Program-made: the position numbers and the translations under genes
In this document: in pieces, positions 34,934 to 40,900 of the stretch
Position numbering within the stretch: position 1 is the stretch's first letter
Layout: each line of letters begins with the position of its first letter
Assembly (NCBI GenBank): GCA_030531005.1
Contig: JAUMTW010000001.1
Location: 1-64,000 of the forward strand
Reading direction: 5' to 3'
Source: Corynebacterium sp.
GTDB taxonomy: Bacteria; Actinomycetota; Actinomycetes; Mycobacteriales; Mycobacteriaceae
Length of the DNA: 64,000 nt
The notes under the pieces: generated by a model
The model's database searches: none
Seen by the model: the letters and a program-made list of their open reading frames with translations, nothing else
What the model was told of the DNA's origin: nothing

Positions 34934-35275
34934 CTACGGGCGGCTCAGATCTGTTTGTCCTTTCTCACAATATCCGGCAGCAAAGTCGTTGCGCCCAAAG
35001 GTTTTCGCGTCTACGGTAACTCGTGCGATTTCACCAGGAGCAACGCAATCGGAGGCCTTTTCTGTTTTCCCCTGTACCCATGCATAATGCCAGTTATCTT
35101 CATTTGAGAATGATGACCAAACCACACCTCCAGAGGCCCCATGATCCCATTGCCCGCCAAGGTATTCTTCACTAGTGGCAGGGGATTGCGCTTGCTTATA
35201 CAGCATGGTCATAACTACAGCAATCGCAACTACTGCGAGAATCAGTACGCCCAAAATCTTCGTCAGACGTGACAT
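34934..35275 (-). CDS. Lactococcin-972-like peptide with retained N-terminal membrane anchor
   Basis: A 113-aa protein. Residues 6-26 are a hydrophobic segment (ILGVLILAVVAIAVVMTML) without a clear cleavage site; the rest is extracytoplasmic. Residues 38-60 (YLGGQWDHGASGGVVWSSF) match the lactococcin 972 family and the peptide encoded at 38089-38373. Cys77 and Cys103 have the same 26-residue spacing as Cys68 and Cys94 of that peptide. It is the last gene of the cassette, 44 bp after the ABC ATPase. It may be a second bacteriocin or, by its anchor, a tethered immunity decoy; both are inference. Confidence 0.75.
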   Translation of the reverse strand: MSRLTKILGVLILAVVAIAVVMTMLYKQAQSPATSEEYLGGQWDHGASGGVVWSSFSNEDNWHYAWVQGKTEKASDCVAPGEIARVTVDAKTFGRNDFAAGYCEKGQTDLSRP

Positions 35276-35319
35276 TGTATGTACCTCAAATCTTTTAGCT
35301 TCTATCTTGCGACAATTGG

Positions 35320-35991
35320 TTAACTTGCCAACTGGACCTTTCTATCTGCATGGTCGGCTACCCATGGATCATGGCTTACTAACACCACTGCGGCACCTGT
35401 GTCTGCACATTTACGCAACAGAGTGAGGATCCGGGTAGCGTTTTCTCGATCCAAAGAGGCCGTGGGTTCATCGGCCAAAATGACTGGTGGCTGGCGCGCC
35501 CATAACCGCGCCATGGCCACGCGTTGCTGTTCGCCACCACTGAGGGCATAGATCTTGGTATTCTCGAATCCTTCTAATCCTACTTGCATCAAAGTCTCTT
35601 GAATGAGGTGCGTACGTTCTGATCGCTTGGTTCGGCGGGGGAGCGCCAAGGCGATATTTTCACGGACCGTCTGGTTTTCGATAAGTGCAAAATCCTGAAA
35701 TAGGTACCCAATGGTTGTGCGCCGTAGCAGGCGCCTTTTCCGGGCAGAACAATTCTCTACGCGTTCTCCTTGAATGAAAATTTTCCCGGAGTCGCAGGTG
35801 TCAAGCTGTCCCAGGCAGTTTAATAGGGTCGATTTTCCACATCCCGATGGCCCCATAAGGCAGAGAATCTCACCTGGAAAAACTTCTAAATCAAGGTGTG
35901 ACCACAGAGTTTTTGGGCCAATGGTTTTCGTTATTCCTTGAGCAGCAAGAGTAGGCATATCCGGGGTGGAATGTGTTGGAGATGTGTTCAT
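35320..35991 (-). CDS. ABC transporter ATPase of the lactococcin-972-type cassette
   Basis: A 223-aa ATP-binding subunit of the MacB/LolD-like class. Walker A GPSGCGKST (47-55), Q-loop Gln99 (GYLFQDFALI), signature SGGEQQRVAMAR (151-162), Walker B VILADEP (170-176), D-loop, and switch His207 (LVSHDPW). It should energise the neighbouring membrane protein in export of, or self-protection against, the lactococcin-like peptides. Its ATG overlaps the stop of the membrane-protein frame by 4 nt (ATGA), so the two were coupled. Confidence 0.92.
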   Translation of the reverse strand: MNTSPTHSTPDMPTLAAQGITKTIGPKTLWSHLDLEVFPGEILCLMGPSGCGKSTLLNCLGQLDTCDSGKIFIQGERVENCSARKRRLLRRTTIGYLFQDFALIENQTVRENIALALPRRTKRSERTHLIQETLMQVGLEGFENTKIYALSGGEQQRVAMARLWARQPPVILADEPTASLDRENATRILTLLRKCADTGAAVVLVSHDPWVADHADRKVQLAS

Positions 35992-38013
35992 AGTTCCTCC
36001 TTATGAGGTTGCTTACCCAATTGCGGTACACGTTGAAGTTGGAGAATCTTGCGATGGTGAAAGAGTGCGGGTGAGGTGAGTGTCAGAATGAAAATGCAGA
36101 GAACCCACACAGCGGGGTGAACATAGAATTGTGCGAGTGTGGCTGGATCGGCGGGTATACCACCGTGGAAGGAAGTCCAAGTACGGTACAATCCCCCTAG
36201 ATGCCAGATGTACCAGCACAAAAGTATTGCAGTTATAGCTTCTATACAGAGAATCATTGCAAGAAAATGTCGTGGCACGATTCCAAGAATCTGTGTTACT
36301 CGCAAATATTGGTGATATACCTGTCCAAAGCACTTTGAAAGAGCCCACCCGGAGGCTAGGATTGCCACAATTAAGAGAATTAATGTGCCCCAATAAACCA
36401 GCATAGAGGTGTGCGCATCATTGTGATTCCGTGCCCATTGCACACTGAATTGAGTATAACCAGCTATGAAGGTTTGAATGCCCTCGGTGTTGCGCAAAGC
36501 TTGTACATTTTCTTCACCGATAATCCCGATATCATTCTGCGTGACTGCAGCCACAATGGTGCGGTCATTTCCCGAGAGATTTGCATCTGGGTAGACGAGA
36601 ACAGTGGGATTTGTGATTAATGCGCGGTTCATCCAATTTGAGAAGCTCGCTTCCCACGTTTTTTGCCTGGAAGCTATGTGTTGCACGAATAACTGCACAT
36701 GCATTAGCTTCCTGGCATTCCGTGGGGAAGAGTAACTGGGGATCAGCTTGTGCTCCAGTAGCTCCAGGCGGCAGTACTACCAAAGGTTTTTCGGCTGTTA
36801 ATTGTGTGAGTTCATCTTTGGGGAAATTCCGCAGTGATTCTTTCGCTCCGCTAGCGTTATAGATCATGCGATCACCGTTTGCAGAGGTGTTCCCTATACC
36901 AGAGTCAAGGTATGTGGCATACAGTGCATTACCTTGGGCTGATTGCGCACGAATTGCACTTGCCAATTGTGCTGTATCGGCTTCAATGCCCTCAAAGGTA
37001 CGGGCACCGCTGAGTTGCAAAAAGAATACATCATTGTTTTCTGCAGCGATGGGGCGATCAATCATCTGCTTAGAGTATTCGGTAGTGAGGTTGAGAGCGG
37101 GAAGTGCGATCGCTGAAAGAAGAATTAACCCCATTATGCGAGTAGCAGCCACGAGGGTTAGGACGTAGCCCGAGGCAACTTTGCCTTTGAGTGCTGCCAC
37201 GAGAGGCGTTAGACGGGTAATGGCTAATGTTACTATTCCTGAGACAAGTAAAACTGCAAGGAAACAAGCGCTATAGGCCACCCAATATTCTAAGACCTGA
37301 CGGTAACGTTGTACGCCACTAGTGCTCAATATGGCGGCACTTCCAGCAAGGAATATTATCGCGAGTGGTATCCAGCGCTGTCGGAGTGCCATGAAGAAGT
37401 TTGTGAAGTATGAGTGGAATATTCCAAAGCCGAGAAGATTTTTAATGGCATAAGCGCGGGCATCAACGAGAATGCTGCTTATGGAAAGAGATGCAATTAA
37501 GAAAATGAAAAGCAGCATTACTTTTGAAAGTGGAGTTCCGTCATATAAGAAATCCCAATTGAAATATCCGAGCGACTCATATTTCACGTCTTTTGCGTCA
37601 AGAAAATCACGAATAGTATTAGTAAAATCATCCCCACCAGAAAGTTCGTATAATTGCCGTGCATCTCCATAGGGCAGGGCTGTAAGTTCAGAAACCTGAT
37701 ACTTTTCATGTGGGAAAAGGGTTGGGTAACCAGTGTTTATCCAGTCTGAGGCTTTCGCTCCAGCTACATAGAGATGCTGCTGGTTAGCTTCAGCGAGTTG
37801 CACAGTTATGGTTTCAGAATTCTCGTCAGCGATTTGGGTAAGTTCCTGGAGTATTTCTAATTCGAAATTGCCTGGAACTTCCAAGATTTGAATATTGCTA
37901 TTAGTACCAATGGTTGTCTCTGCTTGGAAAAGTAGAACTGTCCAATAGGCTGTCAAGAGGGCAATTGTTACCGCGAGCAGTATGCTTATTCGAGTGAAAA
38001 CTAGTCCGGTTGG
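35988..38013 (-). pseudogene. Frame-disrupted bacteriocin-associated integral membrane protein (DUF1430-like)
   Basis: Two overlapping frames together spell one protein of about 675 residues. The upstream frame (open 38013-36565) has an N-terminal hydrophobic segment, an extracytoplasmic domain and a four-TM block (LLFIFLIASLSISSILV onward). The downstream frame (ending 35988) has the last extracytoplasmic part and three TM segments. They join at an A6 run on the minus strand (36659-36664): with five A the product reads through ...FQAKTWEASFSNW... No ATG with SD starts the upstream frame; an ATG at 38017 is one base out of frame and would fit if a T-run at 37997-38000 were one shorter. The topology and context match TIGR01654/DUF1430 putative immunity/transport proteins of lactococcin 972 loci. 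Confidence 0.7.
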
Positions 38014-38048
38014 TCATTGCGAGCGTAGTGCTGGACCAACCGGACTAG
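38001..38048 (-). terminator. Attenuator-like hairpin between the bacteriocin and membrane-protein genes
   Basis: A perfect 15-bp inverted repeat, CTAGTCCGGTTGGTC (38001-38015) and GACCAACCGGACTAG (38034-38048), with an 18-nt loop. On the minus strand TTTT follows directly (38000-37997). It lies 40 bp past the bacteriocin stop and immediately before the membrane-protein frame, so it should partly terminate transcription and favour the peptide mRNA. Confidence 0.8.
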
Positions 38049-38088
38049 CCTTTTCCTTGTTGATCAAAATGAGTATTCCTGACGATCT

Positions 38089-38373
38089 CTAGCAGTGGCG
38101 ATAGTAGCTACCATCGCTACGTAGTGTGCGGGATTCGGATATTGCCCGAGCCCAGGTTCCTGGAGGCTGACATCCCGAATCTACATACTGCTTACCGCGA
38201 ACAGATGCACCATGCCCTACGCCGTCATGCTTATAGTAGGACCACACCATGCCGCCAGAGGAGCCTTGATCCCATGTTCCGCCATCTTTGTATTCGGTAG
38301 CAGCTTGTGCAACACCTATGCCCGCACTTAAGAGGAGGAGGGTGGCCAAGGAAGAAGTTATATGTTTTCTCAT
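38089..38373 (-). CDS. Lactococcin 972 family bacteriocin-like peptide
   Basis: A 94-aa precursor. Residues 1-24 are a Sec signal peptide (ITSSLATLLLLSAGIGVAQA), giving a mature peptide of about 70 residues, close to the 66 of lactococcin 972. The mature part has the family pattern GGTWDQGSSGGMVWSYYKHD, then HGASVRG, GTWARA and a C-terminal YYRHC. Two Cys (68, 94) are present; lactococcin 972 itself has none. Lactococcin 972 binds lipid II and blocks septum formation; activity here is inferred. GGAAAAG lies about 10 nt before the ATG. It heads the cassette. Confidence 0.85.
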   Translation of the reverse strand: MRKHITSSLATLLLLSAGIGVAQAATEYKDGGTWDQGSSGGMVWSYYKHDGVGHGASVRGKQYVDSGCQPPGTWARAISESRTLRSDGSYYRHC

Positions 38374-38413
38374 AGTAAATTTCTTTTCCGGGCAGTGTTC
38401 AACAAGGTTACGC

Positions 38414-38428
38414 TTAGCATAATACTAA
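38414..38428. promoter_or_regulatory. Promoter-overlapping palindrome of the bacteriocin gene
   Basis: TTAGCATAATACTAA is a TTAG-N7-CTAA palindrome. On the minus strand it contains TATTAT, a good -10 box, 41-55 nt before the ATG. It may be an operator overlapping the promoter. Confidence 0.45.
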
Positions 38429-38659
38429 AAAAGCCATATCGTAAGAGTAAGAATTTTTTATGCCAGTATTTGGCGGTTATCGCTCAAGGGTATGGTGATA
38501 AAACCTTGCGGTTCTTTGGGTAATAGGAATACCTCGCCTTGGAGAATGCGATGGTAGCTGTAGGTATTTTGATGTCTGCAAGCGCAGTTTTGTTATGTAA
38601 ACGAATGTCACTGCCTAGTACAGCAGTGGTTCTAAGTAACAATGAAAATCAGTAGGTCC
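38429..38659. other. AT-rich upstream region of the cassette
   Basis: AT-rich sequence with no gene seen. It separates the bacteriocin promoter from the cysQ remnant at 38660-38815 and may hold further regulatory sites. Confidence 0.35.
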
Positions 38660-38815
38660 GTAAGAGCCGTGTTCTTTAAGAGAGTCGGTACTCATTCTAG
38701 AATTTCTTTGGCAAGCTCTGGACTACAAGTGAGTAATCTGACATGTGGTTGTCTTTATTGTTATAGGTACGGGGAGTTTCATGCGAGTGGGAGCAATGCA
38801 AAACTAGCTGCCAAA
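38660..38815 (-). pseudogene. Decayed 3' fragment of a cysQ copy
   Basis: The minus strand contains LLTCSPELAKEILE followed by a stop, then in a shifted frame LKEHGSY. The intact CysQ at 41283-42041 ends [14 protein letters not shown]...LKENGSY. DNA alignment upstream also holds (ACC-TA-AACAA-AA-GACA-CC). Stops and frameshifts show it is dead. It lies in the same orientation as cysQ, immediately upstream of the bacteriocin promoter. Confidence 0.85.
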
Positions 38816-39164
38816 CTTATGCCTCAGCAATTGAAGAAGCAACATTTTGAAATCGCCAACGTGAGGCGTTGGTTGCAACGGGAGTGAAACCAGTCGTGGA
38901 GCTGTGCAAAGCAACAACACACGAGCTTGGTCGAAAGCATCCAGGATGTATTGGTACTTCCAAAATATTTAGATGCAATTGTATGTATGTGTCAATCTTT
39001 CCGGAACAATTGCTCAAGTCTTGATGAACGCCCGCAGTGTTGTTCCTTTTATACGTTGATCAACTGCGATGCCCTGTCGACATTGATCAGGGACTACCTC
39101 GCTTGGCAGTTCTTTGCATATGGATGCGCTCCAATGGGCTGGAGTATTAGCAAGCTAGTAGTAG
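38816..39164. other. Gene-free stretch between the cysQ remnant and aspA
   Basis: About 350 bp; short frames on both strands look non-coding and I recognise nothing. It may be decayed DNA left by the rearrangement that placed the cassette here. Confidence 0.35.
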
Positions 39165-39201
39165 AAAAGTAACCCGCGTTATGGAAAACGGCGCGGGTTA
39201 C
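39165..39201 (-). terminator. aspA terminator
   Basis: GTAACCCGCG (39169-39178) pairs with CGCGGGTTAC (39192-39201); on the minus strand TTTTC follows. Confidence 0.85.
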
Positions 39202-39214
39202 GAGCATTTGAGCA

Positions 39215-40900
39215 TTAATCATCAATGTAGAGCTTGCCACGATACGTTGGATGCATCAGATTCTCCTTACTTAAAACCTGATTCAAGGTGTCTTCATCCA
39301 TCAACCCCTTTTCGAGTACTAGTTCGCGCACAGTTTTGCCGGTACGAGCAGCCTCCTTGCCAATGAGGTCTCCATTGTGGTGGCCAATGAAAGGATTGAG
39401 GTATGTGACAATCCCAATGGAATTTTCCACGTAGGCTCGGCAGACATCTTCGTTTGCAGTGATCCCAACAACACATTTCTCACGGAGTGCATCAGCGGCA
39501 TTCCCTAAAATTCGAATGGACTGGAATAATGCTTCTGCGATGACTGGCTCCATCACATTGAGCTGCAATTGGCCAGCTTCTGCTGCCATGGTTACTGTGT
39601 AGTCATTACCGAAAACTTTGAAACATACTTGGTTTACAACTTCGGGAATGACTGGGTTGACTTTTGCTGGCATGATTGAAGATCCAGCTTGGCGCGCAGG
39701 CAGATTGATCTCCCCTAAACCTGCGGTTGGTCCGGATGACAGTAGGCGCAAGTCATTGGAAATCTTAGAAAGCTTCATTGCTGCGCGTTTGATAGCAGAG
39801 TGCGTGAGTACATATGCGCCAGTGTCACTCGTTGCTTCCACAAGATCTCGAGCGCTTTTCACCTCGAGTCCCGTGACCTCAGAAAGGGTGGCGGTGACCT
39901 GGTGTCGGTACCCGGAAGGAGTATTTAATCCCGTTCCAATGGCAGTACCACCTAGGTTGATTTCCAGAAGTCGATCTGTGGCTGCACGTAGTACGGCTTG
40001 TTCTTCAGCCAAGTTGTGTGCAAAGGCTTGAAATTCCTCGCCGAGAGTCATAGGAACGGCATCTTGCAATTGGGTCCGACCCATTTTGAGTATGTCTACG
40101 AATTCCAATGCTTTTTGGTGGAAGGCTTTTTGTAGTGCATCAATCTGATCGATAAGCCGATCCATGCACATGTATAGTCCTAATCGGAATCCTGTGGGGT
40201 AGGCATCGTTGGTGGATTGGGAAAGATTGACATCGTCATTGGGGTTGATGTGGTCGTAGCTGCCTTTGGGTTTCCCTAAATATTCCAGTGCCAAGTTGGC
40301 AATAACCTCGTTTGTGTTCATGTTGAGGGAGGTTCCTGCGCCTCCTTGGAATACATCTAGAGGAAATTGATCCATGCAGCGGCCTTTGACGAGGATTTCA
40401 TCGCAGGCCCAGACTATGGCTTCTGCTTTGAAGCTGGGGAGGGTATGTAAGCGTCGGTTTGCGAGTGCTGCAGCCTTCTTAACCAGCACCATTCCCCGGA
40501 TAAATTCTGGGATTTGGTTGATATTTGTCCGAGAGATTTGGAAGTTTTCCATGGCCCGCATGGTATGGATGCCGTAGTACTTGTCATTTGGTACTCGCAT
40601 GCTGCCTAATAAGTCTTCTTCGATGCGGTAATCGTTTTGTGGTGCGCGTTTCGGTGGCAGCGAGCTGTTATTGGCTGGTTTGGTGGTGGTTTGTTGTTCT
40701 GTTTGTTTTGTTGTGGGGACGACTTCCGCTGCTTTGTTTGAAGGTCGTGTTTCAACTGACTTGGCTGTCGGTTGTACTTCTGCGCGTTGTGCTGATGCCA
40801 TGTTCATTCCCTCTGGTACAGCGTTATTCTTCGTTTCAGTGCCGGCTTCCGCTGCTTTTTTGTGCTTTGCAGGGGCTTCGGTGTGGCTGTCTTTAGCCAT
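39215..40900 (-). CDS. aspA: Aspartate ammonia-lyase with N-terminal extension
   Basis: A 561-aa fumarase/aspartase superfamily lyase that splits aspartate to fumarate and ammonia. The signature [15 protein letters not shown] carries the catalytic Ser; other conserved blocks are [45 protein letters not shown] and GTAIGTGLN. The catalytic domain starts at about residue 92 ([14 protein letters not shown]). Before it is a low-complexity Lys/Thr/Ala/Gln extension of about 90 residues, longer than the roughly 50 in C. glutamicum AspA as I recall it. GAGGAGA precedes the ATG by 5-6 nt. It lies between the cysQ remnant and cysQ. Confidence 0.92.

What the first reader, a model, noticed from the sequence alone, without database searches (positions are those of the whole stretch)
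34934..38373. Lactococcin-972-type cassette between thyA and aspA/cysQ
Seen: a secreted GG-x-WD-x-G-SSGG peptide, a hairpin, a polytopic protein in two frames, an ABC ATPase with complete motifs, and a second peptide with the same core motif, all on one strand with short or overlapping junctions. Known: lactococcin 972 loci encode a Sec-exported peptide that targets lipid II plus a DUF1430 membrane protein and ABC ATPase. Inference: a corynebacterial septum- or wall-targeting peptide with its immunity/export set. A four-gene cassette with two unlike peptides is not the standard lactococcal layout.
Basis: partly seen in the sequence, partly recalled or inferred. Interest (0 to 1): 0.85.

Follow-up and report, generated by a model that had tools for sequence, protein, structure and literature searches.

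The report
Bacteriocin cassette with tethered look-alike immunity
This corynebacterial gene cluster encodes a lactococcin-972-family peptide with a predicted export signal, an ABC transporter whose membrane part is broken in this genome, and, as in nine other genomes of the genus, an extra look-alike of the peptide that is predicted to stay fixed in the membrane and likely protects the cell against the bacteriocin.

Summary
On the minus strand, 38373-34934 holds a lactococcin 972 peptide (PEP1), a hairpin, a membrane protein (MP) in two frames, an ABC ATPase and a second lactococcin 972 protein (PEP2); both peptides pass Pfam's cut-off for PF09683. It looks like an insertion: cysQ and thyA lie side by side in 16 of 18 relatives. 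The surprise is PEP2. It does not look like a second secreted peptide: it has a hydrophobic helix without the usual cut site, an acidic linker and a predicted Lcn972 fold, and lacks the YYR-x-C end of the first peptides. Its kind recurs in 10 of 242 Corynebacterium genomes, directly after the ATPase gene in nine (start and stop overlap in six). Four of those units lack PEP1, and three of their genomes, each one contig, have no PEP1 at all. So PEP2 belongs to the transporter. Best reading: a membrane-tethered bacteriocin mimic that works in immunity with the transporter (inferred). In this genome MP is decayed (no usable start, frame change), so the cassette is probably not fully working here. 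New variant of a known kind; no activity was tested.

The parts
38089..38373 (-). PEP1: lactococcin 972 family peptide, 94 aa, predicted Sec signal ending in A-Q-A, mature part ~70 aa ending YYRHC
   Evidence: PF09683 44.5 bits, cut-off 22; TIGR01653 30.3 bits, just under its cut-off 32.1; signal motif and C-terminus
38001..38048 (-). Intercistronic hairpin, 15-bp perfect arms, 18-base spacer, followed by TTTT; likely attenuator between PEP1 and the transporter genes
   Evidence: unique in the genome; z -5.68; stems of 10 or more pairs near this junction in 13 of 20 cassettes
36565..38013 (-). MP, first open frame (stop to stop; first standard start TTG at 37956 lies inside the first membrane helix): N-terminal two thirds of the bacteriocin-associated membrane protein; start region missing
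   Evidence: tblastn with eight intact relatives and one truncated; TIGR01654 13.9 bits, far under cut-off
35988..36704 (-). MP, second open frame: C-terminal third of the same protein, in the next frame
   Evidence: tblastn with the same nine relatives, homology from 36674-36659 onward
35320..35991 (-). ABC ATPase, 223 aa; nearest models are the lactococcin 972 exporter, DarD, FtsE, DevA and LolD ATPases
   Evidence: PF00005 120.9 bits; TIGR03608 223 bits, cut-off 254.85
34934..35275 (-). PEP2: membrane-tethered lactococcin 972 domain protein, 113 aa (helix 3-26, linker, beta strands 33-102)

Best explanation
This is a lactococcin-972-type cassette with a fourth gene, PEP2, which encodes a predicted membrane-tethered relative of the bacteriocin and likely serves in self-protection together with the ABC transporter. 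[quoted passage not shown] A hairpin after PEP1 would let only part of the messages run on, so that much PEP1 and little transporter is made (inferred). PEP2 keeps its N-terminal helix in the membrane and holds the same beta fold on the outer face (predicted). There it would catch PEP1, by pairing with it as Lcn972 pairs with itself or by shielding lipid II, and hand it to the MP-ATPase pair, which would clear it from the membrane (inferred). The tie of PEP2 to the transporter rather than to PEP1 is shown: in nine of ten loci PEP2 follows the ATPase gene, in six with overlapping stop and start codons, and four of those nine units have no PEP1. In this genome MP is decayed, so here either PEP2 alone protects or the cassette is on its way out.
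For: Recurrence: PEP2 profile finds 10 of 242 genus genomes at 128-167 bits, next best 87 (all ten are seeds of the profile), and 22 database proteins including the window's own. A profile of first peptides parts the two kinds as well: PEP1 at 92-137 bits, PEP2 at 53-77. Coupling: ATGA overlap in L098, L101, L108 and L113, TAATG in L064, an 8-base overlap in L114; an anchored small ORF right behind the ATPase was found in PEP2 loci only, among 39 ATPase loci. Independence from PEP1: G066, G105, G132 and G197 have MP-ATPase-PEP2 with no lactococcin 972 ORF in the 2.5 kb upstream; G066, G105 and G197, single-contig genomes, have no PEP1 elsewhere either (only PEP2, plus matches of 13.9 bits and less in G197). 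Anchor: 29 distinct PEP2s, basic before the helix (mean +2.4), acidic after it (mean -2.2), linker 12-20 aa. Fold. Different end: 0 of 29 PEP2s have [YF]YR near the C-terminus, against 23 of 24 first peptides of the 39-locus set. ATPase tree: eight of nine PEP2 loci fall in one 16-row clade (96/98), 5 label changes, 4 of 500 shuffles as low.
Against: No activity, binding or protection was measured. 'Immunity' rests on gene position, topology and loci without PEP1; an ATPase unit without PEP1 could also serve another substrate. In Lactococcus the lcn972 cluster without any PEP2 already gives high resistance (MIC 800-1600 against 12.5 AU/mL, table in passages of PMC4055356), and 30 of 39 ATPase loci here have no PEP2, so PEP2 is not needed in general. 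One paper draws the ATPase as exporter of the peptide, not as immunity (passages of PMC11161930). 3 of 29 PEP2s (G026, G135, P0002) have A-S-A right after the helix and might be cleaved; the loose rule flags 8 of 29. PEP2 falls into two clades and may have arisen twice; its label changes five times on the ATPase tree. G118's copy sits before MP at a contig edge, with no ATPase found. In the window only two lesions are seen in ~700 codons of MP, so the decay is recent and the open state of PEP2 proves no selection.
Confidence: 0.52

Rival explanations
1. PEP2 is a sensing or loading subunit of the transporter: it displays a lactococcin 972 fold so that the MP-ATPase pair recognises this class of peptide or lipid II, without giving protection by itself.
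For: Start/stop overlap with the ATPase gene; presence without PEP1; ATPase tree clustering.
Against: Same data fit direct immunity; 30 of 39 ATPase loci do without PEP2. In the window MP is broken while PEP2 is open, though the decay looks recent.
Confidence: 0.22
2. PEP2 is a second bacteriocin, either freed by cleavage or displayed on the surface and acting by contact.
For: Lactococcin 972 domain over the Pfam cut-off and the fold; source names of several group members read 'lactococcin 972 family bacteriocin'; 3 of 29 have A-S-A after the helix; solitary MP-ATPase-PEP2 units could be bacteriocin loci with their own transporter.
Against: Helix without the A-x-A that 23 of 23 YYR-class first peptides carry; 12-20 aa linker; loss of the YYR end; translation coupled to the ATPase, which suits a low, matched amount.
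Confidence: 0.15
3. The whole cassette in this genome is a decaying relic with no present role; PEP1 and PEP2 are open only because the decay is recent.
For: MP lacks a usable start and changes frame; broken MPs in 4 of 10 PEP2 loci against 2 of 30 others, Fisher p 0.026, loci not independent.
Against: PEP1, ATPase and PEP2 frames, signal, PEP2 ribosome site and hairpin are intact. A sequencing slip could explain the frame change, but not the missing start region. Speaks only of this genome, not of PEP2 elsewhere.
Confidence: 0.3

Closest known systems
Lactococcin 972 operon lcn972-orf2-orf3 of plasmid pBL1, Lactococcus lactis (passages of PMC4055356 read)
   Different: Three genes; no second, membrane-tethered lactococcin 972 protein described; no cysteines in Lcn972 (passage of PMC8538875), while PEP1 and the outer part of PEP2 each have two
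Streptococcin B locus scbABC of Streptococcus pneumoniae (passages of PMC11796350 read)
   Same: Peptide, predicted immunity and transporter genes; units without the peptide exist there too (157 of 571 genomes hold scbBC alone, as that paper reports)
   Different: No fourth gene of this kind in the passages seen; the function of B and C is called unverified there
Mediterrocin cluster of Mediterraneibacter gnavus (passages of PMC12345188 read)
   Same: Lactococcin 972 family peptide with Sec signal, seven-helix DUF1430 protein, ATPase; the cluster also holds unassigned proteins
   Different: Window MP pieces and five relatives do not match DUF1430 in Pfam; whether that cluster's extra secreted protein resembles PEP2 was not checked
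Class IId bacteriocins of respiratory Corynebacterium (passages of PMC12188740 read)
   Same: Lactococcin 972 homologues in the genus, predicted by genome mining
   Different: That study aligns core peptides; no tethered second peptide is described in the passages seen
Formosin D, PDB 9hkj, and Lcn972, PDB 2lgn
   Different: Secreted-type bacteriocins by name; only 17-23% identical to PEP2

Membership tests
Lactococcin 972 family (PF09683), PEP1 | Profile match above the gathering score | tested here: met
   44.5 bits, cut-off 22; TIGR01653 30.3 bits against 32.1, just missed
Lactococcin 972 family (PF09683), PEP1 | Cleavable Sec signal peptide | tested here: inconclusive
   Basic start, hydrophobic core and A-Q-A by motif; no signal peptide program available
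Lactococcin 972 family (PF09683), PEP1 | Antibacterial action through lipid II | not testable with these tools
   Needs purified peptide
Lactococcin 972 family (PF09683), PEP2 | Profile match above the gathering score | tested here: met
   24.7 bits, cut-off 22; three relatives 34.4, 25.1, 34.7 bits. In whole-genome searches PF09683 missed the PEP2 of G066 and G197
Lactococcin 972 family (PF09683), PEP2 | Lcn972 beta-sandwich fold | tested here: met
Secreted bacteriocin, PEP2 | Cleavable signal that frees the peptide | tested here: inconclusive
   By motif only: no A-x-A after the helix in the window's PEP2; 3 of 29 members have A-S-A there
TIGR01654 bact_immun_7tm (MP) | Score above the curated cut-off 189.35 | tested here: not met
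   13.9 bits for the window's first piece; 21.4-46.0 bits for five intact relatives: distant kin at most
DUF1430 (Pfam), MP | Profile match | tested here: not met
   No such match for the window pieces (E up to 1) or five intact relatives (E up to 0.01)
TIGR03608 L_ocin_972_ABC | Score above the curated cut-off 254.85 | tested here: not met
   223 bits, yet the best of all NCBIfam matches
Standard three-gene lactococcin 972 operon | Peptide, membrane protein, ATPase and no more | tested here: not met
   Fourth gene PEP2 after the ATPase here and in eight other loci
Bacteriocin immunity proteins | Protects the producer | not testable with these tools
   Needs deletion or expression in a laboratory strain

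The most novel reading that the evidence does not exclude
Corynebacteria protect themselves from a lipid-II-binding bacteriocin with a tethered copy of the bacteriocin itself: a duplicated peptide that lost its secretion cut and its active end, became fixed in the membrane, and was wired into the transporter operon as a decoy and feeder, a self-mimic immunity protein not known for this family.
Probability: 0.38. Interest if true: 0.78.

Novelty: new variant of a known kind. Interest (0 to 1): 0.6.

Why it matters
[quoted passage not shown] A recurrent, transporter-coupled, membrane-fixed look-alike of the bacteriocin gives a small and testable candidate. It would also show that some proteins now named 'lactococcin 972 family bacteriocin' are probably not bacteriocins, which matters for genome mining.

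Tried and rejected
Second secreted bacteriocin as the first choice for PEP2: set back because of the helix without a cut site, the ATPase overlap and the units without PEP1. Programmed frameshift as the reason for MP's two frames: rejected as first choice because eight relatives have one frame and the start region is missing as well. Hairpin as a mobile repeat: it occurs once in the genome. Anti-phage defence: PADLOC matches only the ATPase, with ATPase-domain models. Plasmid origin: no match for the cassette, for one group member of PEP2 (P0008) or for the 38374-39214 gap in 72,556 plasmid records. Close relatives by protein search: PEP1 and PEP2 each find only themselves. Named relatives by the MP piece: none in genome contigs. 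PEP2 outside the genus: none of 401 family genomes (31 genera) from another genus matched, and no relative in viral contigs. One weak Kibdelosporangium match was not followed. 'Formosin' in papers: no bacteriocin use among the 20 of 226 listed. I searched print six times (open-licence PMC only) and saw no tethered second lactococcin 972 protein in the listings and passages; seven papers were opened, as outline or passages, none read whole.

Limits and rows left out. One search listed one match for the window's own genome where one search gave two over the cut-off, so its count (34 of 201) is a lower bound; for absence of PEP1 I rely, in which every known PEP2 of the ten genomes was found. The anchored-ORF scan missed the PEP2s of L068 and L113 by its hydropathy or start-codon rule, and L082 offered only 229 bases behind the ATPase. 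In one search, 17 of 53 peptide ORFs were dropped (other PF09683 classes and L087), since the YYR class was picked by its ending; one further ORF (L064 8807) was taken out before. '23 of 24' counts the first peptides of my 39 ATPase loci; ATPase loci of other PF09683 classes (L066, L073, L074, L084, L095, L099, L100, L103-L106) were not in that set. Fetched were 60 stretches; G060, G025, G225, G149 and G203, G215, G237 and a second G196 place were not. Hairpins: 20 of the 24 loci were scanned (L078, L080, L082 and L087 were not); L096, L115 and L116 are near-copies, as are L083 and L093, and three of the 13 stems lie in the start of MP. Of the 8 A-x-A flags, three lie behind the helix, four inside it and one at the domain's edge. 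Broken-MP counts are my reading; L120 aligns only in part.
Full report
WHAT IS THERE. The finding describes window 34934-38373. All genes read on the minus strand. In order: PEP1 (38373-38089), a hairpin (38048-38001), MP in two open frames (38013-36565, stop to stop, and 36704-35988), an ABC ATPase (35991-35320) and PEP2 (35275-34934). thyA starts at about 34879. Both peptides pass the Pfam cut-off for PF09683, PEP1 with 44.5 and PEP2 with 24.7 bits against 22. In the window the two share 'GG-x-WD-x-G-x-SGG-x-VWS' and a cysteine. The ATPase's best NCBIfam match is the lactococcin 972 transporter model TIGR03608, but under its cut-off.

WHICH ORGANISM. So the window is Corynebacterium.

AN INSERTION. 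In 18 same-genus relatives with thyA, the aligned ends of cysQ and thyA lie within about 140 bases of each other in 16; the other two have 1.4 and 1.7 kb between them. aspA was found in none of the 18 stretches, and none of 60 other fetched lactococcin 972 or MP neighbourhoods holds thyA, cysQ, dfrA or aspA. The interval in the window holds aspA, an 841-base stretch without a convincing gene, and the cassette. The cassette's G+C is 0.48, the window's 0.53.

THE MEMBRANE PROTEIN IS DECAYED HERE. Nine relatives were aligned, eight intact (658-718 aa stop to stop) and the truncated G132. They match the window in one frame down to 36799-36673 and in the next from 36674-36659 on. After the hairpin, where several other cassettes have a ribosome site and an ATG, the window has neither; the first standard start in frame is a TTG inside the first helix. 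MP is likewise in pieces in three other PEP2 loci (L068, L110, L118), so 4 of 10, against 2 of 30 loci without PEP2 (L071, L111; Fisher p 0.026; loci are related, and G118, which gives L110 and L111, is only 53% complete). The rest of MP is open, so the decay is recent, and open neighbours say little about selection.

THE HAIRPIN. It is unique in the genome and far more stable than shuffles (z -5.68). Its sequence is not shared, but its place is: 13 of 20 cassettes have a stem of 10 or more pairs in the 90 bases after the PEP1 stop, against 17 of 600 shuffles. Three of the 13 (L070, L075, L097) lie past an ATG, in the likely start of MP; three of the other ten (L096, L115, L116) are near-copies. 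A part-time stop between bacteriocin and transporter genes is the natural reading (inferred). The generic terminator scan, which allows loops of 3-8 bases, does not list it.

PEP2 RECURS AND GOES WITH THE TRANSPORTER. An in-house profile of 28 seeds found peptide ORFs in the fetched stretches. A second lactococcin 972 ORF follows the ATPase in the window and in L064, L068, L098, L101, L108, L113, L114 and L118; in L110 one of the same type stands before MP at a contig edge. A profile of these ten separates them from the other peptides it found in 242 genomes of the genus (128-167 bits against 87 and less; the ten are the seeds). A protein search with it returns 22 proteins, the window's own included, some named bacteriocins by their source. 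At the family level, 401 genomes of 31 genera, only this genus has matches. The junction with the ATPase is tight: six of nine overlap (ATGA in four, TAATG in one, an 8-base overlap in one), L118 starts 2 bases after the stop, L068 has no standard start at the junction, the window has a 44-base gap with a GAGG before the start. None of the other 30 of 39 ATPase loci showed an anchored small ORF right behind the ATPase (the nearest, in L087, starts 158 bases on).

PEP2 DOES NOT NEED PEP1. Four PEP2 units have PEP1 in front (window, L064, L098, L101). L108 and L110 run into contig ends. L068, L113, L114 and L118 have no lactococcin 972 ORF in the 2.5 kb before MP (best E 0.36). A profile of eleven first peptides, run over the ten PEP2 genomes, finds PEP1 at 92-137 bits in G000, G117, G131, G026, G135 and G132 (in the last two at another place) and the PEP2s at 53-77 bits. 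G066, G105 and G197, single contigs, give PEP2 only, apart from matches of 13.9 bits and less in G197; G118, 53% complete, gives PEP2 only. PF09683 itself adds nothing over its cut-off in G066, G105 and G197 but the PEP2 of G105; it misses the PEP2s of the other two, as one search missed the window's, so it is the weaker test. This resembles pneumococci that keep scbBC without scbA, 157 of 571 genomes as reported in PMC11796350 (passages read).

HISTORY. On a peptide tree PEP2 forms two groups, window-G117-G197 (100/99) and the other seven (87/98); one or two origins are possible. The window's PEP1 and PEP2 are each nearest to those of G117, which fits inheritance as a set. On an ATPase tree eight of nine PEP2 loci fall in one 16-row clade (96/98); the PEP2 label needs five changes, 4 of 500 shuffles are as low, and the PEP1 label needs seven.

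HOW IT WOULD WORK. Shown: genes, order, decay of MP, recurrence and coupling. Predicted: export of PEP1, anchoring and fold of PEP2. Inferred: PEP1 binds lipid II, as Lcn972 does (passages of PMC4055356 and PMC11796350); PEP2, on the outer face, catches PEP1 or shields its target and works with the transporter. Against a general need for PEP2: the lactococcal cluster gives high resistance without one (PMC4055356, table in passages), and one paper draws the ATPase as exporter (PMC11161930, passages). That Lcn972 is a homodimer I take from the title of a reference listed in PMC11796350; it makes pairing between PEP1 and PEP2 a reasonable idea, not a result. A kinship of the transporter's manner of work to BceAB-type target protection is recalled, not tested.

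VERDICT. An ordinary family with an unusual and repeated fourth gene.

Noticed in passing
window 39215-40900: An aspA-like gene with a ~90-residue low-complexity N-terminal extension (my reading) sits between the cassette and cysQ; it was found in none of the 18 relatives' stretches around thyA, and the genome's only other match is 41% identical.
   Followed up: partly
window 38374-39214: 841 bases, G+C 0.44, without a convincing gene between PEP1 and aspA; single copy in the genome and no plasmid match. Possibly a remnant of what brought the cassette in.
   Followed up: partly
L064:8807-9292 (-): G117 carries a third PF09683 protein beside its four-gene cassette, of a longer class ending in 'TCFTYWSTQ', on the other strand.
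   Followed up: no
L084, L099, L100, L103-L106: A distinct lactococcin 972 class (several with 'GGGTWEYGFW') recurs with a 266-aa ATPase about 2 kb downstream; no MP match was found between the two, and what lies there was not examined.
   Followed up: no
L068, L110, L118: MP is broken into two or three frames in three further PEP2 loci, two of them in single-contig genomes (G132, which matches C. uterequi, and G197).
   Followed up: partly
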